From Naematelia aurantialba (taxonomy: Eukaryota > Basidiomycota > Tremellomycetes > Tremellales > Naemateliaceae), in assembly GCA_021527695.1 (NCBI GenBank), contig JAKFAO010000002.1:806501-870500 (forward strand): 64,000 bases of DNA, given 5' to 3'. Below the pieces are notes generated by a model. It made no database searches and had not been told where the DNA came from. It saw nothing but the letters and a program-made list of their open reading frames with translations. Shown piece after piece: positions 41,596 through 58,268 of this stretch (position 1 is its first letter; every line of letters begins with the position of its first letter). A program made the translations under genes and the position numbers.

Positions 41596-43359
41596 ATGTC
41601 GTCAGGTCATCCATTCCCTGCGCTGCCTTCAAGCGACGCGTCTCCCAACATGCCTTCCAACGACCAGCGCGATGATCAGCTCGTCGACACGGCTTCCAAT
41701 GCACAAGAAGAGCTTCCGCTGCTTGGCGCCGCTCGTCAGAGATACGCCACGACGGTGCCGTTGAGCCGAGCACCGCTGCGCCGAGCAGCGTCCTTGCAGC
41801 CGTCGTTGGCGTCGCTAGACCAGCGGACATGGACAGGCAGTGGAGACGAACCTAACGAGCCGCCAGGACACGCCGACGCCCCAGCCCCGCTGACCAGGGC
41901 TCACAGGTCGACACAAGGCCTAAACTCGTTCGCCACTGGCTCCGCGTCACCTACTGGTATACCCCCAGAAAGTGGCGACTGGCAGCGACAGTCGTACCCC
42001 GCAGAACGAGGCGCCTCGTCCTCTGCCTCTGCGTCATCTTCTCTGTTCCCGGGAGCACCCGCCACCCCCGACACGCTTTACGGCTCGATGGAATCTTGGA
42101 AGGCAGGGGCATCGCCCATCGAGGCCGCGCCGGAGTCTGCGAACTCGTCGTGGCAGAACCAAGTGGCGCCAATGAGCGCGTCGCAGCTCGACGGTATCAG
42201 GCGGGTATTCGGTGGTCCCATCACAACAGAACCGGAGAACTTGGACGCAGCGCCTGTAGATGCGACAGCACAGCCTGCACACTCTTATTCCTGGCCGGCC
42301 TACATGCCAAATATGACCGCACAACGTGCAAACCCCGTGGCCCAGCCTGAACACCCCGTCTCACAGCCGGCAAACCCCTTCTCACTGCCTGTTAGCCCCC
42401 TTGCACAGTCGGATAATCGCTTTGGGAGCATAGCGGACGACTTCACACAGTTCATGGACTTCATGCAGCCGTCCCCGTCGGACACACTATGGTCAGATAT
42501 CGTGACCGACAACCCCTACAGCACGGTCGACCCGCTCCTCACGTCCACTGACACTTCTACGAACCAACAGGGACCCGCATCGCCGTCTTCTGCGTCCTTC
42601 GGGGGCGGGAATACACCGCTGCAGTCCGTGGAAAGCGCACCGTCCGTCACCGCCCAGTCGCCCACTTCAGTCGTGGGACCACAGGTGCTCGGCCCAGATT
42701 GGCAGCTACCCCGCAACCTCATTAGCTACTCTCAGACTCACGGGCCGATGGTAGTACCAGGGACCTTTTCGCCACTGACATTACCCAGGCAAAGGCAGTA
42801 CTCCCAATGGGGAAACACGTTACCGCCCGCCGCCTCCCTCCAAAGCATTTCGCAGTTCAACCGCTTCCACGGCACGGTCCCGCAAACGTTTGGAGCGGAA
42901 CTCGGCCTTCGGGAATTTACGGCGACGCACCAGACCTTGCAGGAGAACAACGAGGTCCGCTCGTTCCACGGGAGCTGCACCTGGTCTCGGACGTGGGCGC
43001 TGTCTAACTCTCGATCACGCGGTTGGGTGCGCTGGAGACTGCTCGTCGGAGCCAATCTCGATGGCATCATTCCCCCGACGGCGACTGTGACGCTCAAGAT
43101 TCCTCCGACCGAGCGGACCCTGCTGGAGGAGTTCCAGCTGCTCAGCAACGTGGAATTCACGCGTGGTTACCTAACTGGAGAACACCCGCAACGGAGTTAC
43201 GGGGACAAGGATCCGTGGAGGATCCGAAAGTTGATGATGATGACGGTCAACGGCGCCTCCGGCCCAGAACGGGTGGTAGAGACCTGGGCTGAGCTCGGCC
43301 TACGACTAGTGCAGCCCATAGCAACGCACGATCTTCGGTCCATCGGGGTGGGTTCGTGA
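41596..43359 (+). CDS. gene A: island family protein, long disordered N-terminus
   Basis: I do not recognise a known family. Single exon, 587 aa. Residues 1 to about 420 are disordered (Ser, Pro, Ala, Gln) with a short degenerate repeat of QPxNP/QPEHP type around residues 240-275. The ordered C-terminal part of about 165 residues carries the island motifs: ATHQTLQENNEVRSFHGSC, then RGWVRWRLLVGANLDG, then TVTLKIPPTERTLLEEF, and finally VVETWAELGLRLVQ. These line up in order with segments of genes B, C and D. There is no signal peptide or TM segment, and no catalytic motif is evident. It is on the same strand as genes B to F and, like them, lacks introns, in contrast to the intron-rich neighbours. 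Confidence 0.75.
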   Translation: MSSGHPFPALPSSDASPNMPSNDQRDDQLVDTASNAQEELPLLGAARQRYATTVPLSRAPLRRAASLQPSLASLDQRTWTGSGDEPNEPPGHADAPAPLTRAHRSTQGLNSFATGSASPTGIPPESGDWQRQSYPAERGASSSASASSSLFPGAPATPDTLYGSMESWKAGASPIEAAPESANSSWQNQVAPMSASQLDGIRRVFGGPITTEPENLDAAPVDATAQPAHSYSWPAYMPNMTAQRANPVAQPEHPVSQPANPFSLPVSPLAQSDNRFGSIADDFTQFMDFMQPSPSDTLWSDIVTDNPYSTVDPLLTSTDTSTNQQGPASPSSASFGGGNTPLQSVESAPSVTAQSPTSVVGPQVLGPDWQLPRNLISYSQTHGPMVVPGTFSPLTLPRQRQYSQWGNTLPPAASLQSISQFNRFHGTVPQTFGAELGLREFTATHQTLQENNEVRSFHGSCTWSRTWALSNSRSRGWVRWRLLVGANLDGIIPPTATVTLKIPPTERTLLEEFQLLSNVEFTRGYLTGEHPQRSYGDKDPWRIRKLMMMTVNGASGPERVVETWAELGLRLVQPIATHDLRSIGVGS

Positions 43360-43956
43360 ACGAGACCTTCCGGGTGTAAACTCTTACGTAGGAGGATTGT
43401 CCTTCTGTCGCTCAATTCCCCTCTTTAATCTCTTTAATGGAACATGTAATGCCATACATACTTCTGAAACCTGCTTCAGCTCGCTACTCACCCGAACATT
43501 ACCTACATACAATATCTACAATTGTGCACTTACAGAAGCTACGTTCATTCGGTTTTCAGCACTTGGAGAAGTCAAGCTCTTCTCGGTATACAAACCGAGC
43601 CCGGCCGAGTCAATGCATAAAGTGCATATACTCGCACATACGGTACCGCGGCGAATGACAAGCGTCCTTCTAGCCCTAGTGGACGAGTTTTATTGACGCC
43701 TTATTGCGTTGTAGCTCAAAAGAGCGTCGCCGGGAGAGGGAACAGCGCAGACTCTGTCAGGAAGCGAGGCGGTGCAAATTGCTTGTCCAAGGTGAATGAG
43801 CCCACAGATCCATTGAGCCGTAATAATGTGGAAGGGCAGCGTGTTGCCCTATAGGCAGTTCCCTCGCTATGTTGTAGTTTCCTCACCTTTCAAGCAAATC
43901 TGCATAAAAGCCGTGCTAACTGACGTTTGCTTTCAAAAGCTCACCGACTGACTGTT
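43360..43956. promoter_or_regulatory. ancestral promoter region of gene B
   Basis: AT-richer 597-bp spacer between gene A and the transposon. A TATA-like element (CATAAAAG, 43903-43910) lies about 50 bp before the insertion point. Before the insertion this would have been the gene B core promoter, about 85 bp from its ATG. A 99-codon frame at 43397 has no protein-like features. Confidence 0.5.
43952..43956. repeat. target-site duplication, left copy (CTGTT)
   Basis: Five bases directly before the 5' LTR, matched by the same five bases directly after the 3' LTR at 50750-50754. Confidence 0.95.
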
Positions 43957-44220
43957 TGTCATGGAATCCATCGCACTTCCCCTTTTAGGATATATCGTCT
44001 AAGGGAACCCGTATCGCCCCGAACGTGCCCCGTCCCTTAGTAATCCATTCGATGAGTCCCTGTAGGGTGACGTAGTCCCTCGTATATAGCAGATCAACTC
44101 TGTCTCGATATCCTCATCGAATGTATCGCATCTCATCTCAAGTATACATCCGTTCTATATAGAAACCGTTCGTCCACGCCAGGTATACCACCGCCGTAAC
44201 CCGCACCACAGCCCGTGACA
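43957..44220 (+). repeat. 5' LTR, 264 bp
   Basis: Starts TGTCATGG, ends CCGTGACA, so the outer five bases TGTCA/TGACA are inverted. It contains a TATATA at 44083-44088 and a predicted transcription start near 44116. Confidence 0.97.
44083..44088 (+). promoter_or_regulatory. TATA box of the retrotransposon promoter
   Basis: TATATA within the 5' LTR. Transcription about 33 bases downstream would begin at 44116, which is exactly the start of the 13-base string that is complementary to the primer-binding site. Confidence 0.65.
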
Positions 44221-44222
44221 GT

Positions 44223-44235
44223 CGATACATTCGAT
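44223..44235 (+). other. self-priming primer-binding site
   Basis: CGATACATTCGAT, two bases past the 5' LTR, is the perfect reverse complement of ATCGAATGTATCG at 44116-44128 in the LTR. In Tf1 and the sushi group the mRNA 5' end folds onto the primer-binding site and primes reverse transcription instead of a tRNA; this arrangement is the same. Confidence 0.75.
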
Positions 44236-44256
44236 TTGTACTTGCCGTGGACCGTA

Positions 44257-47200
44257 ATGTCTACCTCTCCCACCGATAACACCGATACCCTAGCCGTAGC
44301 CACCAATACGGCTCCTCCGAACCCGTCTGGTACGGGGACGAGGAGATCCGCTAGGCAGGCAGGCATTCCCCCTCCCGTCCCCGATGATCTGGCGACGGAA
44401 GGCACCGAACCTTCCCAACCGCACGTCGAGCAGCTGCAGACGCCCGCCGTGTTGGTCTCTACGGGTGAAGTAGACACTCCCGTATTTTCCTCCAGTATAT
44501 TGGAGTCCGTACTTGCTGAATTGGCAGCAATGAGAAGGAACAACGAACTGTTCCAACAAGAGATATCTGCCCGGCAGGCAGAGAACGAAAGGTTGTTAAG
44601 GCAGCTTCAAGGTCGACCCATTGAGAACACAAACGAACCCGAACTGGACGCAGTTCACGAAGAAAGGGACCCCGTCAATACGGGCACGGAATCCCGACAA
44701 GCATCATACGAAGAAGCGCAACGATACCGTTCTGTCCCATACTCAGAGGAAACTTCCTTAGTACGGGGACCGCTTAACAAAGGCATTAAGCTCAACGCCC
44801 CAGACCCGTTCAAGGGGGATGCCAAATCGATACCAACATTCCTCGCTCAAGTAATCATGTACACGACTATGCAACCTGCAGTGTTTCGAGATGACAACTC
44901 TAAAATCATCTACGCGGGTTCATACTTCAAGGATACGGCTCAAACCTGGTTTGTAGCCATGCTCAACTCAAACCCGAAACCATCCTGGTTTAACTCTTGG
45001 CTTGAGTTCACCGATGAGATCCATAGAGTCTTTGGCCATATCGACCGTAAGGCAGAGGCAGGACGACGACTCAAGGCACTCAGGCAAATCACCACGGTAT
45101 CAGACTACTACGCTCGATTCCTACAACTCAAAGTAGAAGCCGAGTGGGGAGAGACGGCCGAACGTTTTGCCTTCCACGAGGGCCTCAAATCCGACATCAA
45201 GAACGCGCTTGCCTTACAGGTAGACGCCCCCAAGACTCTAAGTGAACTGGTAGACCGTGCCATTCGCCTCGACATGCGTGCACAAGAAAGACGAGACGAA
45301 GCACGACGGGAAGAAGCGGCGAAACCAAACCCGGAAGTGAAGACTAATCGCTTCGGAACTCGTCGATACGGGAATGACAGAACGAGGAGTTCGGTCACGC
45401 CTAATAACGAACCCCGTGGGGGGCAATACGGGAATCGTGCACCGGAGTCACCCATCGCTCCGAAAGATACTGGTCGAAGTCGCCCCCCCTACCATACCAA
45501 CTTACCTCCCGAAGAACAGAGACGACGAGAACAGTTACACCTCTGTTTTCGATGTGGGAAACCGGGCCACGTTACCAAGGATTGTAAGGAAAGAAGATAT
45601 ACCCCTAAACCGAATAACCAAGCAAACATGGCCCAAACGATACCCGTAACGCAAGGTACGGATGGTCGTACTCCGGGAGCGGTTACTCTGAACGCCACCC
45701 TCTCGGAATCTACAGCACCATTCACCATACCGGTACGAATCAACTTGCATCCTCATCGGGCAGTACGAGCCATGCTCGATACGGGTGCAACTCGCGATTT
45801 CGTCGACGAAGAACTACTCAAGTCTCTAAACATTGTACCAACTATGGCCGCCCAACCCGAAAGTATCAAGTTGGCAGATGGATCGATAGCCAATAAGACC
45901 ATCACGCATGAGGTGATACTCACCATCGTGGTAGGTCAAGGTTTCCCTGCGTATACCTCGACATTCATGGTCACGAAGGTCGGAGCCGCGAACATGATTC
46001 TCGGTATTCCGTTCTTCAAGAGTCATGATCCCGTACTGGACTGGATGGGACGCCATATATGTCCCCGTAACACCGACGTTGTCATTGCCACAATGGAACT
46101 CGAACCTGTAGAAGCGGAGGAACTGAAGAAAGCAATCCCTCCCGAGTTCCATAATTTCCTCGATGTCTTTAGTAGGACAGAAGCAAACATCTTACCGGAA
46201 CATCGCCCTTACGATCACGAAATCAAGTTGATGGAAGGCACAACGCCGGGATTTGGACCCATTTATGCCTTATCCCGTACCGAACAAGACGAACTCCGTG
46301 GTTACCTTGACGAAAACCTTGCTAAAGGGTTCGTGGTACCGTCAACCTCTCCAGCGGCGTCGCCCATACTGTTTGTGAAAAAGAAGGACGGATCTCTCCG
46401 CCTATGTGTCGATTATCGACGGCTGAATGCCATTACCATCAAGAACCGTTATCCCTTACCGTTGATCCGAGATCTAGTTGACAAGCTCAAACATGCGAAA
46501 GTCTACAGTAAGATAGACTTACGGGGGGCGTACAACCTACTATGGATCAAAGAAGGCGACGAATGGAAGACGGCGTTCCGAACCCGTTACGGCCTATACG
46601 AATACCGTGTTATGCCGTTCGGGCTCACGAACGCACCAGCATCTTTCCAGTACCTCATGAACAACATCTTTCGAGACTTACTCGACTCGTGTGTCATTGT
46701 TTACCTGGACGACATCTTAGTATTCTCCAATACAAGGGACGAACACATCGCCCAAGTAAGAGAAGTACTCAGACGACTACGACAGAACCGCCTATATGCC
46801 AAACATGACAAGTGCGAGTTCTTTACCACTCGAGTCTCATTCTTGGGATATGTAATCACCCCAGAGGGAGTGAACATGGATCCTGAAAAAGTGGCTACCA
46901 TCAAAGAATGGCCAGAACCAAGGAATCTAAGACAAGTACAGTCTTTCCTTGGTTTCGCCAACTTTTATCGGACACTCATTCCCGACTTTGCGAAGATCAC
47001 GAAGCCATTACATAGACTCGCGAAGAAAGACACGCCTTTCGTATTTGGCGACACGGAACGCGTGTCATGGAATACGGTCAAAGACGCCATTAGCACGGCA
47101 CCCATTGTCCGTCACTACGATCCAGATCTTCCATGTACTGTGGAAACCGATGCGTCGGACTATGCGATCGGAGCCGTACTCTCCCAAACGGATCACGAAG

Positions 47201-49188
47201 GGGTGACACGGCCCGTCGCATTCACCTCTCGAGGCCTCACTCCTCCGGAGTTGAACTACGAGGTACATGACAAGGAGTTCCTTGCCATCGTATATGCTTT
47301 CCAAGAGTGGAGGCATTATCTAGAGGGGAGTAAGGTAATGGTGGAAGTCCAAAGTGACCACAGGTCACTAGAAACCTGGATGACAACCAAAAGTCTAAAC
47401 CGACGACATGCCAGATGGTACTTATATATGTCAGGCTTCGACTTTAAGGTACGATACCGCCCGGGAAAGCTCTCAACGAAACCCGACGCGCTTTCACGGC
47501 GTGCAGATTACCAGCCTACGGACACGGAACAGACCACGCTATCCAAGGAGCTAAACCCGCATAACGTACGAGCATTACTACGCCGGGATCAGGTGGAATC
47601 GGAACCCGTACAAGCCAATACGATCTCAGTACAGACGACCACGGCCTCGACGTCAACTTTCAAGGAAGACTTAAAGTTAGCACTACTCACCGAGGGGCCG
47701 TCAGCCGAGGAAAAGAACCAATTGGTACTCCAAGACAGCCTCTGGCATCGTAAAGACGAACCAGAGATATACTGGATCCCGCCGAGCATGCGTAAAACAG
47801 TCTTTACGGGCTCACACGACGGCCGTACAAGGGGACATCCAGGCCGTACCAAAACCTACGGGAACATCCGTTCCAAATTTTGGTGGTCGTCGATACGAGA
47901 TGATATCCACAACTACGTAGCTACGTGCGAAATATGTCAGAAGACGAAGACTTCCCGACAGAAACCATTAGGCCTACTCAGGCCCCTACCTATCGCGGAA
48001 AAGCCCTGGCAGCACGTATCGGCAGACTTCATAGGGGAATTACCCCCATCGGGTGAATACAACGCCATCCTTGTCTTAGTAGACAGGTTTACCAAGATGG
48101 CGATATTCGTACCAACTACTACGGCCCTCAATGCAGAAGGGTTCGCGAAATCGTTCCTTACAAACGTATATTACAAGCACGGATTGCCCGAAACGCTTGT
48201 AACGGACAGAGGGTCGGTATTCACCTCCCAAGTATGGAAAACCATCACAAACCTATTGGGACTCAAGCATCGCCTTTCTACGGCATACCATCCTCAAACT
48301 GATGGCCAAACGGAAATCGTTAACCAATGGCTTGAGCAATACTTGCGGGTCTACGCGAACTTCGAACAAACAAATTGGGCTGAGCTACTACCGTATGCCG
48401 AACTTTGCTATAACAATACCGTACACAGTACCACGGGTATTGCGCCGTATACGGCCTTCACGGGATACGAAGCGCGAATTACGGATCTCGAAATACCGCC
48501 AACGGGGTCAATTGGCGCACCGAAAGCAGTGTCAATCGTCTCTAACCTGGCCAACGTACACCTCCGACTGAAAGACAACATAGCCAAAGCGAATGAACGC
48601 TACAGGGCTGCCTACAACCGACACCGTCGCGACGCTGTCTTGAGAGAGGGGGAGAAGGTCCTGCTACGCACGACCAACTTGACTACCCTGCGACCGACAA
48701 AGAAGTTCGACGACAAGTACGCGGGCCCGTATAGAGTCATACGAGTCGTAAACCCTGTCGCTTATGAACTGGATATACCGAAAACCGCGAGGATTCACCC
48801 GGTGTTCCATATATCCTTACTGAAACAATACAGGGAACGGGGAGACGAAGAAGAAAAACGGGAAACCGTACCAGACGAGACGCATTTCGAAGACAACGTC
48901 ACTGTACCGAACCGGATCCTACGACATCGTACGGTCCGTGACCAGCAGCAATGGCTAGTGGGAAGAGAAGGAACGGACGACAACGAAGCAGCATGGGAGA
49001 CAGACGAAACCATGAAAGACTATGAGCACTGGGAGACCCTCAAAGCAACCTATACTCCACCGAAGAGAGCGAAGAGAGCACATACGGCTCGCCGAGGTTG
49101 GAAAGGATGGGTCACCATGGAAGATCACACGGTCACAGGAGTGGAAGACACGGAAAACCGTACCCAGAGCTACGGATCGCAGGATTGA
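44257..49188 (+). CDS. Gag-Pol polyprotein of the Ty3/gypsy element
   Basis: Single ORF of 1643 aa with no frameshift or stop between gag and pol. Order from the Met at 44257: capsid-like gag (QVIMYTTMQPAVF...YARFLQLKVEAEWG), CCHC zinc knuckle CFRCGKPGHVTKDC near residue 430, aspartic protease LDTGATRDF near 505, reverse transcriptase LCVDYRRLN near 713 with the YLDDILVFS active site near 815, RNase H TDASDYAIGAVLS near 964, and integrase with an HHCC-like zinc region ending CEICQKTK. The integrase core has ADFIG, VTDRGSVF and HPQTDGQTEIVNQW (D, D, E). The C-terminus has a GPYRVIRVVNPVAYELDIP barrel, then a weak chromodomain (ILRHRTVRDQQQWLVG...AAWETDE...EHWE). All catalytic residues appear intact. 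An upstream in-frame GTG at 44215 is not used as the start. Confidence 0.96.
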   Translation: MSTSPTDNTDTLAVATNTAPPNPSGTGTRRSARQAGIPPPVPDDLATEGTEPSQPHVEQLQTPAVLVSTGEVDTPVFSSSILESVLAELAAMRRNNELFQQEISARQAENERLLRQLQGRPIENTNEPELDAVHEERDPVNTGTESRQASYEEAQRYRSVPYSEETSLVRGPLNKGIKLNAPDPFKGDAKSIPTFLAQVIMYTTMQPAVFRDDNSKIIYAGSYFKDTAQTWFVAMLNSNPKPSWFNSWLEFTDEIHRVFGHIDRKAEAGRRLKALRQITTVSDYYARFLQLKVEAEWGETAERFAFHEGLKSDIKNALALQVDAPKTLSELVDRAIRLDMRAQERRDEARREEAAKPNPEVKTNRFGTRRYGNDRTRSSVTPNNEPRGGQYGNRAPESPIAPKDTGRSRPPYHTNLPPEEQRRREQLHLCFRCGKPGHVTKDCKERRYTPKPNNQANMAQTIPVTQGTDGRTPGAVTLNATLSESTAPFTIPVRINLHPHRAVRAMLDTGATRDFVDEELLKSLNIVPTMAAQPESIKLADGSIANKTITHEVILTIVVGQGFPAYTSTFMVTKVGAANMILGIPFFKSHDPVLDWMGRHICPRNTDVVIATMELEPVEAEELKKAIPPEFHNFLDVFSRTEANILPEHRPYDHEIKLMEGTTPGFGPIYALSRTEQDELRGYLDENLAKGFVVPSTSPAASPILFVKKKDGSLRLCVDYRRLNAITIKNRYPLPLIRDLVDKLKHAKVYSKIDLRGAYNLLWIKEGDEWKTAFRTRYGLYEYRVMPFGLTNAPASFQYLMNNIFRDLLDSCVIVYLDDILVFSNTRDEHIAQVREVLRRLRQNRLYAKHDKCEFFTTRVSFLGYVITPEGVNMDPEKVATIKEWPEPRNLRQVQSFLGFANFYRTLIPDFAKITKPLHRLAKKDTPFVFGDTERVSWNTVKDAISTAPIVRHYDPDLPCTVETDASDYAIGAVLSQTDHEGVTRPVAFTSRGLTPPELNYEVHDKEFLAIVYAFQEWRHYLEGSKVMVEVQSDHRSLETWMTTKSLNRRHARWYLYMSGFDFKVRYRPGKLSTKPDALSRRADYQPTDTEQTTLSKELNPHNVRALLRRDQVESEPVQANTISVQTTTASTSTFKEDLKLALLTEGPSAEEKNQLVLQDSLWHRKDEPEIYWIPPSMRKTVFTGSHDGRTRGHPGRTKTYGNIRSKFWWSSIRDDIHNYVATCEICQKTKTSRQKPLGLLRPLPIAEKPWQHVSADFIGELPPSGEYNAILVLVDRFTKMAIFVPTTTALNAEGFAKSFLTNVYYKHGLPETLVTDRGSVFTSQVWKTITNLLGLKHRLSTAYHPQTDGQTEIVNQWLEQYLRVYANFEQTNWAELLPYAELCYNNTVHSTTGIAPYTAFTGYEARITDLEIPPTGSIGAPKAVSIVSNLANVHLRLKDNIAKANERYRAAYNRHRRDAVLREGEKVLLRTTNLTTLRPTKKFDDKYAGPYRVIRVVNPVAYELDIPKTARIHPVFHISLLKQYRERGDEEEKRETVPDETHFEDNVTVPNRILRHRTVRDQQQWLVGREGTDDNEAAWETDETMKDYEHWETLKATYTPPKRAKRAHTARRGWKGWVTMEDHTVTGVEDTENRTQSYGSQD

Positions 49189-49302
49189 CTGCGACGACGG
49201 CGCCGTACACGACAAGATGCACGATACCTTGTACGGACGCCCGACAAGAAGGGATATGCTCCCAGACCAATGGTATTACATGCACAGAACCACCACCCAC
49301 TA

Positions 49303-50326
49303 CTACTGAGCCTCACCCTCCACATCGTCCCTCTCCTCACTCTCCCTACTCATCTCCTCGTCCTCATCCTCCACGTCCACCACCCTCGCCCGCTTGGCCG
49401 CTCGAACGGCCTCGGGAGCCGGAGACAACGAAGACGCCTGACTCGCGACCTGGCGAGCAACCACAGTACCGCTCCGAAGATGGAGCCCGGAAGACGAGCC
49501 GGCCGTACCCCCCGAAACGAACCCCGTGGTCACGTTGACCTCACCAGTCGTACCGGAGCCACCGACAACCGTAGATGCCACTACGGGACCCGTAACAGGC
49601 GACGACGGCCCAACCACAGACGGAGCAGGAACGGACGATTGAGGAGCCTCCGCCACGGCCAACAGGTCACGCCAAAGCACCGACATCTGCTCGCGAACCG
49701 TACCGACGGGCTCGGGATTCGCCCGGGGTCGACGAGATTTCGCCTCTCGAATACGGGAGACGACGAAGTTGACATCTCGCAGGCGAGACAAGAGAACCTC
49801 GTCCTCAGGACGGTACTGCGAGTACAGCATGTCGTTGGCCAGCTTGATGAACCGACCCAGAGACGCCAGAGACTGATCGATTTCGGGCTCCGGCAGAACC
49901 CATCGACCCCGACGACCCGTCCGCGTACCGATCCGCAACGAGCAAGGCACCTTCAGCACTCCACACCGTAGACACCTACACGGTTACCGTACTCCAGAAT
50001 ACGTGATATCGTACCACAACTTACCCATGAACTGGCGCCTTGTCCCGAACCACGTCTCCAATCCCCCAATTCTCGTTCGGTATGGGCACGATGCACTCAC
50101 CCGAGGCATCCACGCACTTCACACACTTTCGAGGAGGGAGAACGGTCACGATCGCATGAGTTTCCTCATAAAAGGCCGCCTGTACCGTCATGTACTGTTG
50201 GGGATGGGCAACAGACTCAACCTTGTCCTCCAACTTCGCCATCAAGTCGTTATATTGATCGTTCTTGACGGGCGCGAGAACGACCCCACCAACCAGCTGG
50301 AATTCATAAGTACGAACGGGAGCCAT
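49303..50326 (-). CDS. antisense spliced accessory gene of the retrotransposon, Cys-rich
   Basis: Encoded on the strand opposite gag-pol, between its stop and the 3' LTR. Two exons (50326-50025 and 49975-49303) joined by a 49-nt GTAAGT...TAG intron total 975 nt, 324 aa. The splice brings together two equally spaced cysteine sets: CVKCVDASGEC in exon 1 and CLRCGVLKVPC across the junction, each C-x2-C-x6-C, reminiscent of the paired motifs in many basidiomycete zinc-cluster-like proteins. Exon 1 also has YNDLMAKLEDKVESVAHP; exon 2 has a helical stretch and a Ser/Thr/Gly/Val-rich part, then a basic AAKRARVVDVEDEDEE patch with an acidic tail. DNA or RNA binding is a plausible role but unproven. 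It is tail-to-tail with gag-pol, 114 bp apart. Confidence 0.72.
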
Positions 50327-50472
50327 GGTGAGAACGATTCAAATTTGAGAGACGACGGGGGGGCGTACCAAGAGTACGAGCATATATCGTCCCACTCAAG
50401 CATCGACTCGACGTTTTAGCAGGCAATCTCATCGGTAATCCGGTCTCGTTCTTCGCGCTATAGACGTCCTTT

Positions 50473-50485
50473 AAAGGGGGGAGAG
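50473..50485 (+). other. polypurine tract of the retrotransposon
   Basis: AAAGGGGGGAGAG immediately before the 3' LTR, the usual priming site for plus-strand DNA synthesis. Confidence 0.9.
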
Positions 50486-50749
50486 TGTCATGGAATCCAT
50501 CGCACTTCCCCTTTTAGGATATATCGTCTAAGGGAACCCGTATCGCCCCGAACGTGCCCCGTCCCTTAGTAATCCATTCGATGAGTCCCTGTAGGGTGAC
50601 GTAGTCCCTCGTATATAGCAGATCAACTCTGTCTCGATATCCTCATCGAATGTATCGCATCTCATCTCAAGTATACATCCGTTCTATATAGAAACCGTTC
50701 GTCCACGCCAGGTATACCACCGCCGTAACCCGCACCACAGCCCGTGACA
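50486..50749 (+). repeat. 3' LTR, 264 bp
   Basis: Identical to the 5' LTR by base-by-base reading. Its TATATA points towards gene B, whose ATG lies 39 bp beyond the LTR end, so the LTR could supply gene B with a promoter. Confidence 0.97.
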
Positions 50750-50754
50750 CTGTT
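50750..50754. repeat. target-site duplication, right copy (CTGTT)
   Basis: Matches 43952-43956. With flanking sequence the original target reads CTGTTGGTCACCAACAG, a perfect 8-bp-arm palindrome with a one-base centre. Confidence 0.95.
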
Positions 50755-50788
50755 GGTCACCAACAGACTCCTCTGTCACCGACTAGGT

Positions 50789-52189
50789 ATGATCCAAGGC
50801 TACATTGAGGGCTTGGGGCTGAACACGAATTATACTGGTCAGGCCATTGCAGACACGAGCAGTTTCCCGTTCTTTCCGGACCCAGCCACATCGATTCGCA
50901 ATGAGTTGTTGGCACAAAATGGCCACGAGGACAAGCTCAACGGCGACATCGCCATTGCGATGAGCAACCTGCCTTTGATGGTGAACCACTCGCAATTCAC
51001 CCTTGCCTTGTCCTCTGATTGGAGTCGACAACCTCGTGCAGGACCCTTGAAGTACTCTTGCTCTGCACAGTCCGTGTTCCGCCTCGCTGATGCTCTGGGA
51101 GAAAATCGTCTTTTTAGATGGACATTCGAGGTTTCGACCCACCTGGACATGCAGAATGCAATGGATTTTGGAAAACAACTGACAGCTTCCGTGCCCCCCT
51201 ACGACACGAGTTTCTACCAAGACCTGTCAGGCAGCGCCATGTCTGAGCTCCGACAGCATTTGACAGACTTGAACCGCGTCGATTGGAACGCGCCAATCAC
51301 GATATGGACGACTTGGGGCAAGTACCTGCAGACTCGGAATGCAGACTCCCGGTCGGCTCCCGTCGTACCATCCAGAGACCTCTTGCTCGTCTGGGGCGAA
51401 CTCACGTTAAGCCTCGTAAGCCCAGGGCTGGAGATCCAGCAAGCGGGACCAAGCGACTGGGACGGTAGACGCACGCAGCATTCGTTGATGCGAAGCGCAG
51501 CCAAACGTGGGCACCAAGCGGGTCCATTTGGCTCCCTCAACACTCAGGAAGTGGGACTGGGTGCATGGAATTCGAATCACCAGCAATGCTCATCCCTGAT
51601 TGAATGCTCCTACAGCCAAGATGCAGAATCCAGCAGCTCGGTCAGCAACCAAGAAGCGTCGCCAAGTGCATGGAACTCGGCTCACCTGCAACGCTCGGTC
51701 CTCTATAGATCGGGCTCATACAGCCAGGAAGCGGAGTCCAGTACCTCGGGCAACAATCAAAAAGTGTCGCCGAGAGCATGGAATGCCGCTGATCAGCAAT
51801 GCTCCTCCCTGATTGGATGTGACCATTACAGTCAAGAAGCTGAATCCAGCAGCTCGGTCCACAATGAGGAAGCGGCGCCAAGAGCATGGAATTCCACTCA
51901 CCTGCAATGCTCATCCCTGAATGGATGGAACCATCACAGCCAAGAAGCTGAATTCAGCAGCTTGGTCAACAATCCGTACCCTGGACCAAGCGGATGGGTG
52001 GCGAGCCACACGCCGAGCTCGTTCCCTCGCGAGACATCGTGGAGCAGTCAGGAGGCGGAATCAACAGGATGGGCAGGAAGTCAGCTAGCAGCACCCAGCG
52101 GGTGGCTGATTAGTGAGGAGGGCGGATCTAGTGGATGGGGTGAGGTTCAAACGCAACGCTCCTTCCTGCATGGTCTCCCTGGCGGGTAG
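50789..52189 (+). CDS. gene B: island family protein with 36-residue C-terminal repeats
   Basis: Unknown family; single exon, 466 aa from the Met at 50789. The first 230 residues contain the island domain: LPLMVNHSQFTLALSSDWS, FRLADALGENRLFRWTFEVS, APITIWTTWGKYL and VWGELTLSL. The first two match gene D closely (LPKQINHTQLSLRYDHS, FGDIYGEERRFMWTLRIS). The C-terminal half has four 35-36 aa tandem repeats (51548-51976) built on AWNS...QCSSL...SQEAESSS, then further degenerate SGW-containing units. No signal peptide or TM segment is seen. The transposon lies in its leader, so its native promoter is now 6.8 kb away; the coding region itself is undamaged. An upstream in-frame extension into the LTR is not considered native. 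Confidence 0.72.
   Translation: MIQGYIEGLGLNTNYTGQAIADTSSFPFFPDPATSIRNELLAQNGHEDKLNGDIAIAMSNLPLMVNHSQFTLALSSDWSRQPRAGPLKYSCSAQSVFRLADALGENRLFRWTFEVSTHLDMQNAMDFGKQLTASVPPYDTSFYQDLSGSAMSELRQHLTDLNRVDWNAPITIWTTWGKYLQTRNADSRSAPVVPSRDLLLVWGELTLSLVSPGLEIQQAGPSDWDGRRTQHSLMRSAAKRGHQAGPFGSLNTQEVGLGAWNSNHQQCSSLIECSYSQDAESSSSVSNQEASPSAWNSAHLQRSVLYRSGSYSQEAESSTSGNNQKVSPRAWNAADQQCSSLIGCDHYSQEAESSSSVHNEEAAPRAWNSTHLQCSSLNGWNHHSQEAEFSSLVNNPYPGPSGWVASHTPSSFPRETSWSSQEAESTGWAGSQLAAPSGWLISEEGGSSGWGEVQTQRSFLHGLPGG
51548..51976 (+). repeat. four 35-36 codon coding repeats in gene B
   Basis: Units at 51548-51652 (35 codons), 51653-51760, 51761-51868 and 51869-51976 (36 codons each). Shared residues are AWN near the start, QCSSL or a variant in the middle, and SQEAESSS before the next unit. 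In-phase 108-nt periodicity suggests copy number can change by recombination. Confidence 0.85.
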
Positions 52190-52261
52190 ATGCCTCTGAT
52201 AGAGGAGGAAAAGCGCCTTGAGCAAACAGTATTGTACTATGGCCAGTTTCGGCCGCGTTGT

Positions 52262-52271
52262 GTTTTATATA
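52262..52271 (+). promoter_or_regulatory. TATA-like element before gene C
   Basis: TTTATATACC-type string, about 240 bp before the gene C start codon and 75 bp after the gene B stop. Confidence 0.4.
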
Positions 52272-52505
52272 CCATGATAGACTGTACCTACGTAATGCGG
52301 AAGCTAGGGGTGTACGAGACTTGGCTGAGTGTAAGGGTTGGGAACCTATCAGTACTGTATCTCGAGACTGGCTCCTTTATCTCCTGCACTTCTTTCAGTG
52401 GAAGTCCGGTCTTCCGCCCCTACGTCGAGCAGACGGGTTTCGTCCTGTTCCCTTCCCGATTGGAAATTATCACGACCTTACTTGGCCGCCCTCGAAATAC
52501 TCCTC

Positions 52506-53192
52506 ATGCCGCCTGGAACCAGTGACGCATCCGACTCGTGTGTCCCAACACATGAGCCAGAGCGGGCAACGGCGCCTGACAAGCCGGACAGAGAATTCGC
52601 CACCCAGTTTTCTTCAGGAGCTATCGGTTGGAAGATATTTCCTGCACTTTGGAACACCTCGTTCAAGGACCAGATTCCCAGCCGAACGCTCACGAAGGCG
52701 CTCGAGAGCATACCTGAAGCCATGGAGTATAGAGAGTACCAGCTTACCCTCCACTATTCAGATCTGAAGGAGGTGGTGTATACAAGTGCGATCGAGACTT
52801 GCTTCTCGTTCGAAGACGAGTTTGGCTCGCTGGAATTACGAACATGGGCATTCCGCGTGAGCGCGGCGTTCCGTGCGTCGACCTGGCACAACCCGTCTCC
52901 GGATACCATCACGCTCAAGCGCTGTCCAGAGCACGGGACCTTGCTCTCCGAGTTCCTCGAGAGTGTGGCAGGCAACCTGGAACAGCACTTGAGTGGCTGT
53001 CAGTCCGCTGCGCACTTCGCCCAGTGGCGTGCACGGGCAATGCCGGTGGAACTGTTGGAAGAACAACAGGAATCTCAGGAGCATGGTATTCGCATCCGAG
53101 TAGACGCGAGCTTGACGTTGAGCGCGTTTACGCCTCGGCAGTCTTCAAGCTGCCCACTCGCAGAGTCCGTAGGCCGCGTTTACAACCTTTGA
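52506..53192 (+). CDS. gene C: island family protein
   Basis: Unknown family; single exon, 228 aa from the first ATG of the frame. It is close to the bare island domain, without long disordered additions. Motifs in order: IGWKIFPALWN (compare IRWKMLDVYPY in gene F), YQLTLHYSD, FSFEDEFGSLELRTWAFRVS with following AAFRA, ITLKRCPEHGTLLSEFLES (compare gene A VTLKIPPTERTLLEEF) and RVDASLTLSAF at the C-terminal strand. The frame is open 168 bp upstream but has no ATG there. It lacks a signal peptide, TM segment or known catalytic pattern. It lies between genes B and D on the same strand, with no introns. Confidence 0.7.
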   Translation: MPPGTSDASDSCVPTHEPERATAPDKPDREFATQFSSGAIGWKIFPALWNTSFKDQIPSRTLTKALESIPEAMEYREYQLTLHYSDLKEVVYTSAIETCFSFEDEFGSLELRTWAFRVSAAFRASTWHNPSPDTITLKRCPEHGTLLSEFLESVAGNLEQHLSGCQSAAHFAQWRARAMPVELLEEQQESQEHGIRIRVDASLTLSAFTPRQSSSCPLAESVGRVYNL

Positions 53193-53534
53193 TTCTCGCC
53201 CCCGTCGTCCTTGGCTGGAGCACTCGGTGAAGGCGACGAGTGGCATAGAAGGAGTGGAGATGCAATGTACATCGTGTTCCATCCCTTCTTTGCATGCAAC
53301 ACGGAAGCCCACTGCTTCACTAGAGCACCGTAGCGAGACTTCGTGGTCTGACCTCTGGTGGAGCGCCAATAGCGTCTTGAAAGGAAAGCACAAACGCCTA
53401 GGCGTGCGTTTCAAGCCTAGAAGGCTACATGATTCGTGTCCCCCCCGCCGCCGTCTCTCTTCTTCTCCTGCTCTCTCGCAAGTGCCCCGTCCTCTACTCT
53501 GTTTCGTTCTCCACTGGACAGACTCTCGTATACC

Positions 53535-54533
53535 ATGACCTACGAAGGTCCATACGAACGTACATATGATCGCCTGGACAGAGCTCCGCCACACACGCGG
53601 TATGATCCGTCTACGAGAACAAGCCGACCAAGCCGCACATGGGTGGACGATTCGTCATGCCCCCCCACACGCTTCGACGACAGCGGAGAGAAGCTGTACT
53701 CCGAGGCAGATTTCAAGCGATTCTACGATTACATGATGTCGAAACTCAAGAGGACGGCAAGGACGACTGGGGAGACGGATGAGAACGACCCATGCGACGA
53801 GCCGTGGCGTCGGTCGAGCATATTCGCCGACGATGACACTGATGCCGAGGATTTCGAATTCGACAGAGTCATGAGAGACTTTTGCCAGCGCCGGAAGGTG
53901 GCAGTACGGGCACCGGTAGCATCCAGCGTGTACGTCGACCATCCCTCTCCCGCCAATCAGCGGCTGTCCATCTTGGAGTCGTGGGAACAAGCGGACATCA
54001 AAGTGTTCAACGCGCACGCCCGTGCCGGGCTGCCGAAGCAGATAAATCACACGCAGTTGTCGCTCAGATACGACCACTCGTGCCAGGTGAACGGCATCGC
54101 CGCCGAGGTGTTCATCGGGAGCTACCAGAAGCGGTTCGACTTTGGAGACATCTACGGCGAAGAGCGAAGGTTCATGTGGACGCTCCGGATATCCGCGACG
54201 GTTCGGGCGGACAACGACGTCTTCAGCAGCATGGGCACGCTGGACGGCACGCTAATCCGCACCCTATGGCTGGACGGCGGCTCGTACAGACACGACCTGC
54301 CGAATGTGTCCACGTCGACCCGCGTGGGCACGCTAGACGACGTCGACGGCGGCGAGATGGCCGTCATGTGGAGCTTGAAGCCCAAGCTGGCCCAACAGGT
54401 CTTCTTCGGGGATTCCCAAGAGTACGACGGCAGATGGCTCTCGAACTTGGGCGAGGTATCAGGCCAGCTGTACTTGAGCTGCGAACCCATCCGCCCACAA
54501 TACCTCCAGCCAGTGAGACACCCGCCTCTGTGA
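53535..54533 (+). CDS. gene D: island family protein
   Basis: Unknown family; single exon, 332 aa from ATG 53535, preceded by a pyrimidine-rich leader. The N-terminal 150 residues are charged and probably disordered (Tyr, Arg, Asp, Ser; a run DDDTDAEDFEFD). The island domain follows: LPKQINHTQLSLRYDHS, FDFGDIYGEERRFMWTLRIS, LIRTLWLDGGSYRHDL, EMAVMWSLKPKLA and LGEVSGQLYLS. Of the six genes it is the best match to gene B, with conserved NHxQ, GExRxFxWT and W(S/T) positions. No signal peptide, TM segment or enzyme motif is recognised. Confidence 0.72.
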   Translation: MTYEGPYERTYDRLDRAPPHTRYDPSTRTSRPSRTWVDDSSCPPTRFDDSGEKLYSEADFKRFYDYMMSKLKRTARTTGETDENDPCDEPWRRSSIFADDDTDAEDFEFDRVMRDFCQRRKVAVRAPVASSVYVDHPSPANQRLSILESWEQADIKVFNAHARAGLPKQINHTQLSLRYDHSCQVNGIAAEVFIGSYQKRFDFGDIYGEERRFMWTLRISATVRADNDVFSSMGTLDGTLIRTLWLDGGSYRHDLPNVSTSTRVGTLDDVDGGEMAVMWSLKPKLAQQVFFGDSQEYDGRWLSNLGEVSGQLYLSCEPIRPQYLQPVRHPPL

Positions 54534-55417
54534 GCGGCGCTGCCTGTTGCAAGGTGTACGTCGCGAAAGGTTTCAGAGTTTCAGAGTACTGCTTGATTTG
54601 TCTTCCGAAAGTCGTTTGCCTCCGAGAATGGGTCCAGAAGTCATGTATATAGCAGCATGAATCGGATGTTGGATGGGTTGTAAAGTCCTCTCGGCAATCC
54701 AGAACAGGAACTCGATGGCAGGCTCGGTGTCGCCACTCGTCCTTCTTCTGGGCAAGCACGGCTCGCGGCAAGGGGGAAATGGGGACCTCTAGGGATACTG
54801 AAGAGAATAACTCAGGCCGCCAAGTCCCATACTATGCGCTGAAGGGCAAATTCACGGCCCGATCCAGTGATAAATGCACTCTACAGATACCCACTGCTTT
54901 CAAACGACTGTGGTCCCCCAGCGTCGTCGTGGAGTCGAGCAAGCCAGCCTCAACGGGACGACGCTGTGAAGTATTTCGTTTCACCTCGTTTGGCTAAAGG
55001 GTCAGTTTTCAGTAACTGGAACTGTCATCGTACCCGAACACGAAGGCCAACGACCAGATCGGCCACCATCCTGTCCCCAGCTTGCATTTCCATCAGCGTC
55101 GCGATTTCTCGGCCACAGTGAGAGAATGGACTTCTTTGAGCCCATCGCCAGCGAATACGTCACTTCGGGGAGTTCGTGCGTCCCTTTATAGAAACTCCTT
55201 GGATCAAGTGAGATAATACCGGGGGAAACCAAGGGAGGTATGCTGCTCGGCGTAGAGGAAGACTATGTCTCTTGCAAGTGCAGAGTGGCCAGCTCAAATC
55301 CGCCTCCCAACTGCATTCTCTTCAAGCTAGATACCAGTCTGGACACCAGGAGAGGCTTGTCTCCTCGTCGACTTGCACTGAGGCGTGGAGCTCGGCTTTC
55401 CAGAGCTTTGTGCTGTT
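54534..55417. other. intergenic, gene D to gene E
   Basis: An 884-bp spacer. A TTTATA at 55185-55190 may be the gene E TATA box, about 230 bp before its ATG. A frame opening at ATG 55240 (MLLGVEEDYVSCKC) overlaps the gene E start in another frame and could be an upstream ORF. A degenerate family copy was looked for here and not seen. Confidence 0.4.
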
Positions 55418-56233
55418 ATGCTTCATCTGTCCACAGACACAGCAGCACTTTCAACGATTTTTCACTGGCCGGTTCCCACGCGCCATCCACCGATATGGGC
55501 CCTGCTCGAGCCGTACGTGCCCCCAGGATCCATGGACGACTTTTGGCTGGCAGTCGAGACTCTCTGGCATGCGATGAGGGCGGACACCTGGGACTTTGTC
55601 GACGGGAAGAGTGTTCGGCCGGGGGGCAGCCTGCGCACGGACTCCCTTCCAAGCCCCCCGTGCTTCCAGTTACAGATGGACGACGAGCACCTTGTCAATT
55701 CCAGCTTTGATTTCCAGGTCCGCCTGTTGTCCAAAGTGGTACCGTCTGATACCAGCACGGTCGGCGCGACCGCTATCGGGGAGCTTCTCAAGAAACAAGG
55801 GCTCGCCAGCGAAGCGCAAGACCCCGCCTACCAGCACCTTGTCAACATGCCCGACATGTCGACCCAAGGTAGGGGGAAACAGTGGGATACCACGTCGTTG
55901 CCACTTTACATCTGCAAGGAAGATAGTTCATTCATGCGTGATTACTGCTCCGGTGAGGACGGGCATCACCTTCCCGATCTCATCGCCGAAATCAAGTCTT
56001 GTCCACATCCCAGGGCTCGCTTGACCTGCTGGTCCCATGTAAAATTTCTCTCTACTGAGCTTGATTGGCCGTCGGATGAGATTCCCCAATACTGTGCCGT
56101 CGGTGAAGTGATGCTCACGTTTCCTGCTCACTCGGAGGTGCAGGTCGATGTCGAAGAGCCGTTCCACACCCTCTGCATATCAACGCCCTACTCAACAAGT
56201 TATGAGAGACTGCATCTGCCGGAAATGCCATAG
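55418..56233 (+). CDS. gene E: island family protein, most diverged
   Basis: Unknown family; single exon, 271 aa from ATG 55418. Similarity to the other island genes is weaker: NSSFDFQVRLLSKVV occupies the place of the FxWTxxxS strand, ARLTCWSHVKFLS the place of APITIWTTWGKYL in gene B, and YCAVGEVMLTFPA the place of VWGELTLSL. The N-terminal part (TIFHWPVPTRHPPIWALLEP, DDFWLAVETLWHAMRADTWD) is rich in aromatic residues and predicted ordered. There is no signal peptide or TM segment. Membership rests on the C-terminal motifs, strand, intronless structure and position; the start is uncertain because the frame is open upstream. Confidence 0.6.
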   Translation: MLHLSTDTAALSTIFHWPVPTRHPPIWALLEPYVPPGSMDDFWLAVETLWHAMRADTWDFVDGKSVRPGGSLRTDSLPSPPCFQLQMDDEHLVNSSFDFQVRLLSKVVPSDTSTVGATAIGELLKKQGLASEAQDPAYQHLVNMPDMSTQGRGKQWDTTSLPLYICKEDSSFMRDYCSGEDGHHLPDLIAEIKSCPHPRARLTCWSHVKFLSTELDWPSDEIPQYCAVGEVMLTFPAHSEVQVDVEEPFHTLCISTPYSTSYERLHLPEMP

Positions 56234-56308
56234 GACTGGTTGGTCAGATCCCGGGAGCTGACACAGAGGGGAACTACTACCGGTATGGTAGATGAGGCAT
56301 GCATGCGA

Positions 56309-56316
56309 TATAAATA
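56309..56316 (+). promoter_or_regulatory. TATA box of gene F
   Basis: TATAAATA, the clearest TATA box in the island, 244 bp before the gene F ATG and 76 bp after the gene E stop. Confidence 0.6.
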
Positions 56317-56559
56317 GCCCTGCTGCTAGGCCTGTCTTGCTTGGTCGTCTTGTCCGCGCATCAACAGTGTGGGCCGGTCGCCACCCAGGCAGTTGCAGCT
56401 TCTCTCCCCAGAAGGACAAGAGATGGCTAACGGCTGCTGCTTTGCACACCGCGCCTGCATCCTCCCATTGTCGTGCTGAGTTTGAACCAGAACGACGACT
56501 CCAGTCCAACGCACATAATTCAGTACACTTGTTTTCCGTACCGATCACACCACAGTGGT

Positions 56560-57435
56560 ATGAGCGACCAGAATCTATCAAACTACGGCGACGCCGACAT
56601 CTACGTCTCGTTTGGCGATTCAAATGCCGAGTCGACGGCCTTGGAGCACGTCAGGAAGCACCTTTATGTTCCCATCCGGTGGAAAATGCTCGACGTTTAC
56701 CCTTACACGGACGACCCGGGAGAGGCTCTACCCCGCCGTCTGCCGACCCATTCGACTGTCATCGAGTCGGACAGGTTCGAGCTAGCCTGCGAGAGGGTTG
56801 GCGATGAACGCCGTGCGCTTGTGGAGGCTCAATGGTGTCTCACTATTGTTGCCTGCACGATGGATCCTGCCGTCATCCCGCCAACAGAGAGTACCATCCT
56901 GATCTTATCCGCGTCCACGTCCCCCGACGGCACGCGAATGGTCATCCATACCATTCTGCGCGAACTGGAGAAGTACGCCAGCCTCGCCCCCGACGGTCGG
57001 GGCTGCACCGAGCTGAACCACACTTACGTCGTCACGCGGCCATCGACCCGTTACGCCTTCTTAGCGGCGGCGATGCCCAATTGCCGCCTGAGCTTCGGGC
57101 AGGAGAACCAAGAGGAGGAGCCGTTGGAGGTAGCTGCATACGCAGCGTTCAGACTAGATTTGCGGTGCCATGAGGTGAGGTCAATCGAGGAGGACATAAT
57201 GGCCAGTACAATCGAGGAGACCATAACCGCCAGTACTGGGAACCCTAGCCAGGCGCCTTCGATACCTGAAGAGAATCCGCCTTCAATGCCTGAAGAGAAT
57301 CCGCCTTCGATGCCTGAAGAGAATCCGCCTTCGATGCCTGGAGAGAATCCGCCTTCGATGCCTGAAGAGAAGCCGATGTCAGATGGCGACCAGCAGCCAG
57401 ACGGGACAAACGGCACCAGCAGCGGGGAAGAGTGA
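56560..57435 (+). CDS. gene F: island family protein with PEENPPSM repeats
   Basis: Unknown family; single exon, 291 aa from ATG 56560. Motifs: DIYVSFGDSNAES, IRWKMLDVYPYTDDPGEALP (compare gene C IGWKIFPALWN), RFELACERVGDERRALVEAQ leading into WCLTIVACTMD (the FxWTxxxS position), STILILSASTSPDG, LNHTYVVTRPSTRYAFLAA and AYAAFRLDLRC at the C-terminal strand. The tail is acidic and contains four to five copies of an 8-residue unit PEENPPSM (57264-57372). No signal peptide or TM segment. It is the last recognisable member of the array; the next gene downstream is a conserved ankyrin-DIL protein. Confidence 0.68.
   Translation: MSDQNLSNYGDADIYVSFGDSNAESTALEHVRKHLYVPIRWKMLDVYPYTDDPGEALPRRLPTHSTVIESDRFELACERVGDERRALVEAQWCLTIVACTMDPAVIPPTESTILILSASTSPDGTRMVIHTILRELEKYASLAPDGRGCTELNHTYVVTRPSTRYAFLAAAMPNCRLSFGQENQEEEPLEVAAYAAFRLDLRCHEVRSIEEDIMASTIEETITASTGNPSQAPSIPEENPPSMPEENPPSMPEENPPSMPGENPPSMPEEKPMSDGDQQPDGTNGTSSGEE
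57264..57372 (+). repeat. 24-nt coding repeats (PEENPPSM) in gene F
   Basis: Four to five near-identical in-frame copies of a 24-base unit encode an acidic, proline-rich octapeptide. One copy has Gly for Glu and the last has Lys-Pro for Asn-Pro. Confidence 0.9.
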
Positions 57436-58268
57436 TCCTCGTGTTGATATGAGCATGCAGTCTTGCCGAGTCTTGTAGTTTGAGCGCGTCGTGATGCATA
57501 CAAGACGATCCCACTGCTCCCCCGGGAAGCCACCACCATTACTCGCTCCGTGCGAGGTCAGGAGAAGTATATGGGCGACGTCGACTCGGCCAACAAGCAA
57601 CAAGCGCTTTAACATCCAAAGAAGCCGACAGGCCAGGTGAGCTGTGCGTTCACTGGGGCGTCACGTACTCATCCTCCATCCCATCCTCATCAGTCACGTC
57701 GATGCTTGATGTACCCCTCATGGCTCAATCTTGGACAGCAGGTACAGAAACCGCCACATTGCAGCTGGCCGATGGCGCGCATACGAGAACGCGTTTGGCA
57801 GGTCAGACGTCGGTTGCACTGGTAGAACAGCACTTGGACATGGACACCAAGTAAGGTGACCCCCTAGTAGCAGAGCTTCCAAGGCCGAGACGATGCGGAC
57901 AGTGCGGTCTATACTCGTGCTGTATCCATGTCGACAACACTCGAAATACATCGGGATCCAGACTTGAAACAGCCCCGTCCGGCGGGCCAAGTCGTTGATC
58001 TGCACACAACACCGACCATCCCACTTGTTCATTCTTTCTAGAGCCAGCCTCCACGGCCATGGTCATGATGGTCCCAGAGTCGCCCGTGGTGACTTGTGGG
58101 ATACCCAGTCCGCATCTCCGCCAATTTGAAGCGACGTCAAAGGTGCACCGGTGAGGTTGACGGAAATCTTTGACAGGCGATCAGCGCTGATCGAGACAAC
58201 GTAGCTCGCGGTCGTACTCGCCGCATCGCAGATCACCACGCTTCCTCTCCGATCCTTCTCCCGCAACG
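57436..58268. other. unresolved region, gene F to ankyrin-DIL gene
   Basis: The 833-bp stretch should contain the promoter and first exons of the ankyrin-DIL gene. A 44-codon + frame starts at ATG 57719 (MAQSWTAGTETATLQLADGA). Two minus-strand frames (58266-58063 and 58032-57718) read somewhat protein-like (ASYVVSISADRLSKISVNL) but have no start-to-stop structure or family match. A decayed seventh island copy is possible but not demonstrated. Confidence 0.3.

What the first reader, a model, noticed from the sequence alone, without database searches (positions are those of the whole stretch)
41596..57435. Tandem array of six intronless orphan paralogs forming an undescribed protein family
Genes A-F lie head-to-tail on one strand, lack introns in an intron-rich genome, have no signal peptide, TM or enzyme motif, and share ordered motifs. 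First strand: B LPLMVNHSQFTLALSSDWS versus D LPKQINHTQLSLRYDHS. Central strand: B LFRWTFEVSTHLD, D RFMWTLRISATVRA, C LRTWAFRVSAAFRA, A WVRWRLLVGANLDG. C-terminal strand: A TWAELGLRL, B VWGELTLSL, D LGEVSGQLYL, E AVGEVMLTF. C and F share a W-K-(I/M)-(F/L) entry motif. Domain size is about 150-200 residues, with variable disordered or repetitive additions at either end. Strong divergence between neighbours suggests fast evolution, as seen for effector, allorecognition or immunity-like families; the function is unknown.
Basis: partly seen in the sequence, partly recalled or inferred. Interest (0 to 1): 0.88.

Follow-up and report, generated by a model that had tools for sequence, protein, structure and literature searches.

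The report
Orphan gene cluster in golden-ear mushroom
In a jelly-fungus genome, six neighbouring genes that appear to lack introns encode proteins for which no relatives were found; three are clearly distant copies of one another, one probably is, and two remain unproven, so this looks like a real but modest find whose function is untested.

Summary
The window fits the jelly fungus Naematelia aurantialba NX-20 (contig C11 equals the published N50). The six same-strand ORFs A-F lie at the stated coordinates with every quoted motif. B-F are the five longest stop-free stretches of 50750-57500, far above simulation; intron-like sites are rare in A-F (1 in 6.5 kb).

"Six paralogs" holds only in part. 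B, C and D are homologous (leave-one-out profile E 5e-6 to 3e-4; each rank 1 of 72). A is probable (p 0.03, rank 1 of 72). E and F are not shown to belong (ABCD profile p 0.58 and 0.35). No credible match came from four family libraries, nor, for the queries tried, from PDB or a 5.8-billion-protein collection; that last search needs shared 5-residue words, so "orphan" is weaker than it sounds. AlphaFold models of D and C are poor (pLDDT 50, 53) and match nothing; they suggest a beta-rich domain.

The finding omits a young LTR retroelement (43957-50749) separating A from B. Best reading: an old, possibly lineage-restricted tandem cluster of intracellular, non-enzymatic binding domains with low-complexity tails. 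Fast evolution and effector, allorecognition or immunity roles are untested; the homeodomain and STE3 matches found lie on other contigs.

The parts
41596..43359 (+). Gene A, 587 aa; long low-complexity N-terminal part and a putative C-terminal domain (42868-43356)
   Evidence: ORF; profile of B, C, D finds it at p 0.03, rank 1 of 72 but HMMER does not (E 15)
43957..50749 (+). LTR retroelement (Ty3/gypsy type) inserted between A and B; 264-bp LTRs 43957-44220 and 50486-50749 identical; gag-pol ORF 44257-49188. Not part of the family
   Evidence: LTRs; RVT_1, RNase H, integrase, gag, protease domains
43952..43956 (.). 5-bp target-site duplication CTGTT, left copy (right copy 50750-50754)
50789..52189 (+). 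Gene B, 466 aa; domain 50921-51493, then in-frame C-terminal repeats of about 108 bp (36 aa), 51531-51974
   Evidence: B-D BLASTP 2.7e-5 in a six-sequence set; ACD profile finds B at 2.9e-4
52506..53192 (+). Gene C, 228 aa; domain 52617-53189
   Evidence: ABD profile finds C at 4.9e-6
53535..54533 (+). Gene D, 332 aa; charged N-terminal part, domain 53952-54530
   Evidence: ABC profile finds D at 2.2e-5
55418..56233 (+). Gene E, 271 aa; membership not shown
   Evidence: ABCD profile p 0.58, rank 28 of 72; BD profile p 0.03, rank 1 of 72, one of 13 profile tests
56560..57435 (+). Gene F, 291 aa; membership not shown; 24-bp (8-aa) repeats 57254-57399
   Evidence: ABCD profile p 0.35, rank 19 of 72
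39166..40935 (+). Left flank: PEBP-domain gene (one hit is named large subunit ribosomal protein L35; mL38 is a recalled name), also a single ORF
   Evidence: 49% identity to a Naematelia encephala protein; PF01161
58205..61533 (+). Right flank: gene with ankyrin repeats and a DIL domain in separate frames, read as intron-containing (start approximate)
   Evidence: Ank in 58661-59230, DIL in 59617-61530; joining them as one gene is inference

Best explanation
The locus is an old tandem cluster of intronless genes, possibly restricted to this lineage. At least B, C and D, and probably A, carry one shared domain of about 150-190 residues, beta-rich, built round a tryptophan strand (W-x-[FL]-x-[VI]-[SG]) and a C-terminal strand ([GA]-[EQS]-L-x-L). 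The columns invariant in B, C and D are mostly hydrophobic or turn residues, so the domain most likely works as a protein- or ligand-binding scaffold inside the cell; the unrelated low-complexity tails (N-terminal in A and D, repeats at the C-terminus of B and F) would set what each copy is coupled to. Shown: ORFs, coding signal, B-C-D homology, no known domain. Inferred: the binding role, the intracellular site, the inclusion of A. E and F may be further diverged copies or unrelated orphans that share the site.
For: Leave-one-out HMMER: D by ABC 2.2e-5, C by ABD 4.9e-6, B by ACD 2.9e-4, C by BD 2.2e-3, in a set of 208 ORF decoys, their 208 reversals and the six proteins (one 'decoy' was in fact a piece of B). 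Own profile aligner: B, C, D each rank 1 of 72 with z 7.2-11.4 against shuffles; A rank 1 of 72 with p 0.03. No credible family match for six proteins, none in PDB by sequence for D or the ABCD profile. Own-genome searches with A-domain, B, B-domain, C, D, E and F found no credible paralogue outside the locus: B and D find each other (E 0.015-0.018), A-domain, C and E only themselves, F five weak hits (E 0.066 or worse) mostly in its low-complexity tail. Both AF2 models give the same order of seven strands. No DNA-level similarity between the genes at E 0.01, so the duplications are old or fast-diverged. B repeat units 1-3 have dN/dS 0.27, 0.40 and 0.77, from few substitutions.
Against: Both structure models are poor (mean pLDDT 50.1 and 53.2; pTM 0.47 and 0.53), share alignment rows, so their agreement is not independent, and differ in helices. 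A is found by no HMMER leave-out profile (BCD: E 15) and shows no pairwise similarity to D (SW z -0.9). E and F fail the ABCD profile tests. The invariant columns include one Asp and three Ser, and three sequences cannot exclude an active site. No expression, localisation or binding data exist here.
Confidence: 0.5

Rival explanations
1. All six genes are one family; E and F have simply diverged beyond sequence detection.
For: Same strand and similar spacing (gaps 316-884 bp); F has the W-K-M entry and a W strand, E the GEVMLTF end; A and F share one 5-mer, IPPTE; BD profile ranks E 1 of 72 at p 0.03; SW B-E p 0.027; semi-global D-F p 0.007, A-F and C-F p 0.02.
Against: ABCD profile: E p 0.58, F p 0.35; ABCDF to E p 0.22; ABCDE to F p 0.23; AC to F p 0.22; HMMER E 22 and 16. 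A few such p-values are expected among the 30 pairwise tests and 13 profile tests.
Confidence: 0.35
2. B, C, D (and A) are a very divergent branch of a known intracellular beta-sandwich adaptor family such as MATH/TRAF, unrecognised by sequence.
For: Beta-rich domain with a conserved W and no enzyme motif, in tandem copies; the resemblance to MATH is recalled, not computed.
Against: No MATH hit in any of six proteins at E up to 5, though HMMER's filters drop most matches above 0.1. No credible fold match, but the models are poor. PF00917 found nothing in the genome, but its control rang nowhere either, so that search is uninformative.
Confidence: 0.2
3. The proteins are cytoplasmic effectors of this mycoparasite that reach the Stereum host through haustorial micropores, which would explain the missing signal peptides.
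For: Haustorium-like structures are reported in N. aurantialba, and micropores at the host interface in related parasitic species (PMC11355420, passages). Lack of relatives and divergence are effector-like.
Against: The same paper did not observe infection of the host cell by these structures; no expression or localisation data; the array is inside contig C8, not at its end.
Confidence: 0.08
4. The ORFs are remnants of a mobile or viral insertion rather than host genes.
For: Intronless, one strand, no relatives, next to an LTR element.
Against: The element has its own boundaries and a CTGTT duplication and lies between A and B; no relative of D or of the six-domain alignment in proteins predicted from public genomes and metagenomes; no viral fold match at E 0.001 for the C model; codon scores are positive on a table from window neighbours.
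Confidence: 0.05
5. Some ORFs, E most of all, are chance or wrongly modelled.
For: E has the weakest codon score (0.008) and no relatives.
Against: Lengths exceed simulation; its frame is still the best of six.
Confidence: 0.1

Closest known systems
Lineage-specific, tandemly duplicated orphan gene clusters of fungi (general kind, recalled)
   Same: Adjacent same-strand paralogues, no relatives found, divergent copies, repeat-bearing tails
   Different: Only three copies are shown to be paralogues; intronless in an intron-rich genome; internal on the contig
MATH/TRAF-type intracellular adaptor domains (recalled comparison)
   Same: Beta-rich (poor models), conserved tryptophan, no enzyme motif, no obvious signal peptide
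   Different: No Pfam MATH match and no Pfam partner domain; fold not established
Secreted fungal effector families
   Same: No relatives found, divergent, clustered
   Different: No obvious signal peptide by hydropathy; 228-587 aa
Basidiomycete mating-type loci
   Same: Divergent genes in one place
   Different: Homeobox_KN matches are on C11 and C14 and STE3 matches on C3 and C1, not on C8

Membership tests
Tandem paralogue family (A-F) | Adjacent, same strand | tested here: met
   interrupted by one retroelement between A and B
Tandem paralogue family (A-F) | B, C, D share ancestry | tested here: met
Tandem paralogue family (A-F) | A shares ancestry with B-D | tested here: inconclusive
   p 0.03, rank 1 of 72; A-C SW z 3.9, A-D -0.9; HMMER E 15
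Tandem paralogue family (A-F) | E and F share ancestry with B-D | tested here: inconclusive
   ABCD profile p 0.58 and 0.35; HMMER E 22 and 16; a few pairwise p-values of 0.007-0.03
MATH/TRAF domain | Recognised by the Pfam profile | tested here: not met
   no match at E up to 5 in six proteins; filters drop most weak matches
MATH/TRAF domain | MATH beta-sandwich fold | tested here: inconclusive
   models too poor; searches uninformative
Secreted effector | N-terminal signal peptide | tested here: inconclusive
   none obvious in the hydropathy of the N-termini of six proteins, but no dedicated predictor was available
Allorecognition or immunity genes | Known recognition or defence domain | tested here: not met
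   Pfam; PADLOC (models of anti-phage systems)
Allorecognition or immunity genes | Polymorphism between strains or balancing selection | not testable with these tools
   other strains' genomes are not held
Mating-type locus | Linkage to homeodomain or STE3 genes | tested here: not met
   Homeobox_KN matches on C11, C14; STE3 matches on C3, C1; no other homeobox model was searched

The most novel reading that the evidence does not exclude
A-F are one hypervariable family of leaderless binding proteins that a jelly-fungus mycoparasite uses to act inside the host fungus through haustorial micropores, or to tell partners from strangers: a signal-peptide-free effector or recognition family with a fold of its own.
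Probability: 0.06. Interest if true: 0.75.

Novelty: new member of a known kind. Interest (0 to 1): 0.38.

Why it matters
If the family is real and specific to this lineage, it gives a concrete set of genes to test in a fungus whose close kin N. sinensis is reported to need Stereum hirsutum to form its fruiting body (PMC13085929, abstract start in listing), and a small, tractable case of neighbouring paralogues diverged almost beyond detection. The fold is open: a confident structure would show whether it is new or a hidden branch of a known adaptor. If ordinary, it still corrects the record: three shown copies, not six.

Tried and rejected
Known families: Pfam (E up to 5), NCBIfam, PHROGs and PADLOC gave nothing credible for six proteins. 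Weak rows discarded: AfsA E 0.14 on D; phrog_12578 E 0.037 on 13 residues of C; NCBIfam E 0.14 on B and 0.28 on E. PDB by sequence: nothing for D; for the ABCD profile only two IcaR entries at E 0.21-0.23. A, B, C, E and F were not run singly against PDB or the protein collection.

Relatives: D against 5.8 billion proteins, 1168 candidates, none at E up to 10; the six domains as an alignment, 2247 candidates, none. Positive control, the flanking PEBP gene: 4 hits at E up to 1e-5 among the 7998 candidates scored (a capped number), best 49% identity to a Naematelia encephala protein. Fungal cover therefore looks thin, though the cap may hide some. A profile scan of 2659 ORFs (60 aa or more; 48 sequences, 331,157 bases, overlaps and the window included) plus their reversals found nothing new: the best row outside the array had E 0.51 (a reversed decoy), the best real one 0.67; the 12 rows printed for the ABCDEF profile all trace to array genes.

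Mating-type linkage: no Homeobox_KN or STE3 match on C8. MATH in the genome: nothing, with a control that rang nowhere. B repeat unit 0 was out of register and was dropped from the dN/dS statement; by codon position, with that unit still in, substitutions were 82, 84 and 103, only weakly coding-like. Literature: seven searches showed no title describing this cluster; their lists were capped at 10-15 rows. I read passages of PMC8777972, PMC13085929 (plus its section 20) and PMC11355420, no paper in full.
Full report
WHERE THIS IS. The window is 806501-870500 of contig C8 in a 20,997,016-base, 15-contig genome. Contig C11 is 1,814,705 bases long, exactly the N50 published for Naematelia aurantialba NX-20, which has 15 contigs and 20,998,359 bases (PMC8777972, passages); the held total is 1,343 bases shorter. 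The flanking PEBP-domain protein has its best hit in N. encephala at 49% identity. I take the genome to be NX-20 (inference). Four N. sinensis genomes average 6.6-6.8 exons per gene (PMC13085929, passages).

THE OBSERVATION. Six ORFs lie on the + strand where the finding says and each quoted motif is there. For 50750-57500 the five longest stop-free stretches are exactly B, D, F, C and E (479 to 283 residues); 200 Markov resamplings gave a mean longest stretch of 195 and a maximum of 309 (A was not included). Codon scores are best in the annotated frame in 6 of 6, with E marginal (0.008) and one antisense frame close behind in D and F; the training set was five ORFs of the same window. ATG ORFs of 220 aa or more number 6 in 9.7 kb of array, 10 in 45.5 kb elsewhere in the window and 24 in 160 kb taken within the first 30 kb of contigs C10-C15. 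A crude intron pattern occurs once in 6.5 kb of array genes (0.15 per kb) against 1.2 per kb on the + strand and 0.49 on the - strand of 1-39000; over the DIL gene it scored 4 sense and 3 antisense, so it is only indicative. The left neighbour is also a single ORF, so intronless genes are not unique to the array.

WHAT THE FINDING LEFT OUT. Between A and B sits a 6793-bp LTR retroelement with two identical 264-bp LTRs, a CTGTT target duplication and reverse transcriptase, RNase H, integrase, protease and gag domains. Its LTR has 37 matches in the genome, these two included. Identical LTRs suggest a recent insertion; the element ends 39 bp before the start codon of B and may alter B expression (inference). 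Without it the A-B gap would be 631 bp, like the other gaps within the array (316-884 bp).

HOMOLOGY. Pairwise BLASTP in a six-sequence set gave B-D 2.7e-5, C-D 0.001 and B-C 0.02, the next best A-C at 0.23; phmmer put A-C at 0.03-0.04 and A-F at 0.06 one way. Shuffle tests on the domains gave Smith-Waterman z 9.9 for B-D, 6.0 for C-D, 4.2 for B-C, 3.9 for A-C and 2.8 for A-B and B-E; A-D was -0.9. Semi-global tests gave p 0.007 for D-F and about 0.02 for A-F and C-F (15 pairs under two schemes, 30 tests). Leave-one-out HMMER profiles recovered B (2.9e-4), C (4.9e-6) and D (2.2e-5) but not A by BCD (15), nor E (22) or F (16) by ABCD; the set was 208 ORF decoys, 208 reversals and the six proteins, and one decoy was itself a piece of B. 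A separate profile aligner (13 tests, 71 decoys) ranked B, C and D first of 72 with z 7.2 to 11.4, A first of 72 with p 0.03, and E 28th and F 19th of 72 with the ABCD profile; E came first of 72 (p 0.03) with the BD profile alone, and the other E and F tests gave p 0.22-0.23. So three members are shown, one is probable and two are open. There is no DNA-level similarity among the genes at E 0.01.

RELATIVES. No credible Pfam, NCBIfam, PHROGs or PADLOC family matches any of the six. PDB was searched by sequence with D and with the ABCD profile, and the large protein collection with D and with the six-domain alignment: nothing. The method needs shared 5-residue words, and of the 15 pairs among A-F only A-F shares one: it would not have found relatives as remote as these paralogues. 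In the own genome, B and D find each other at E 0.015-0.018 and nothing else; A-domain, C and E find only themselves; F finds five weak matches, E 0.066 or worse, mostly in its low-complexity tail.

STRUCTURE. AF2 on the D domain with A, B, C gave pLDDT 50.1 and pTM 0.47; on the C domain with D, B, A, F 53.2 and 0.53. Both show an N-terminal helix and the same order of seven strands, two long ones at and before the tryptophan strand and a long C-terminal one; the other helices differ. The alignments overlap, so this is weak support. No library match is credible.

HOW IT MAY WORK. The columns invariant in the B-C-D alignment are A, P (three), L (four), F, D, G, W, S (three) and V: mostly core or turn residues, with no shared His, Cys, Glu or Lys, although one Asp and three Ser are shared and three sequences cannot rule out an active site. 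With no obvious signal peptide or membrane segment on a simple scan, the best-supported role is an intracellular binding scaffold. The tails differ: A has a long N-terminal low-complexity region, D a charged N-terminus, B 36-aa repeats and F 8-aa repeats. Repeat units 1-3 of B have dN/dS 0.27-0.77 from few substitutions, consistent with translation under mild constraint. Effector or recognition use is a guess; haustorium-like structures are reported in this species but infection of the host cell was not seen, while micropores are reported in relatives (PMC11355420, passages). The Homeobox_KN and STE3 matches found lie on other contigs, which argues against a mating-type locus.

VERDICT. A real gene cluster of the ordinary orphan-family kind, with lineage restriction likely but not proven.

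Noticed in passing
43957-50749: Young Ty3/gypsy-type LTR retroelement with identical LTRs and a CTGTT target duplication, ending 39 bp upstream of gene B; 37 LTR matches genome-wide, its own two included.
   Followed up: partly
49303-49830: Antisense ORF of 175 aa inside the 3' part of the retroelement, with no Pfam hit: possibly an extra element gene.
   Followed up: partly
57254-57399 and 51531-51974: In-frame minisatellites in F (24 bp) and B (about 108 bp, one spacing 105) that lengthen the protein tails without breaking the frame.
   Followed up: partly
G000 C3:579987-580935 and C1:363126-363964: Two separate STE3-type receptor matches on different contigs.
   Followed up: no
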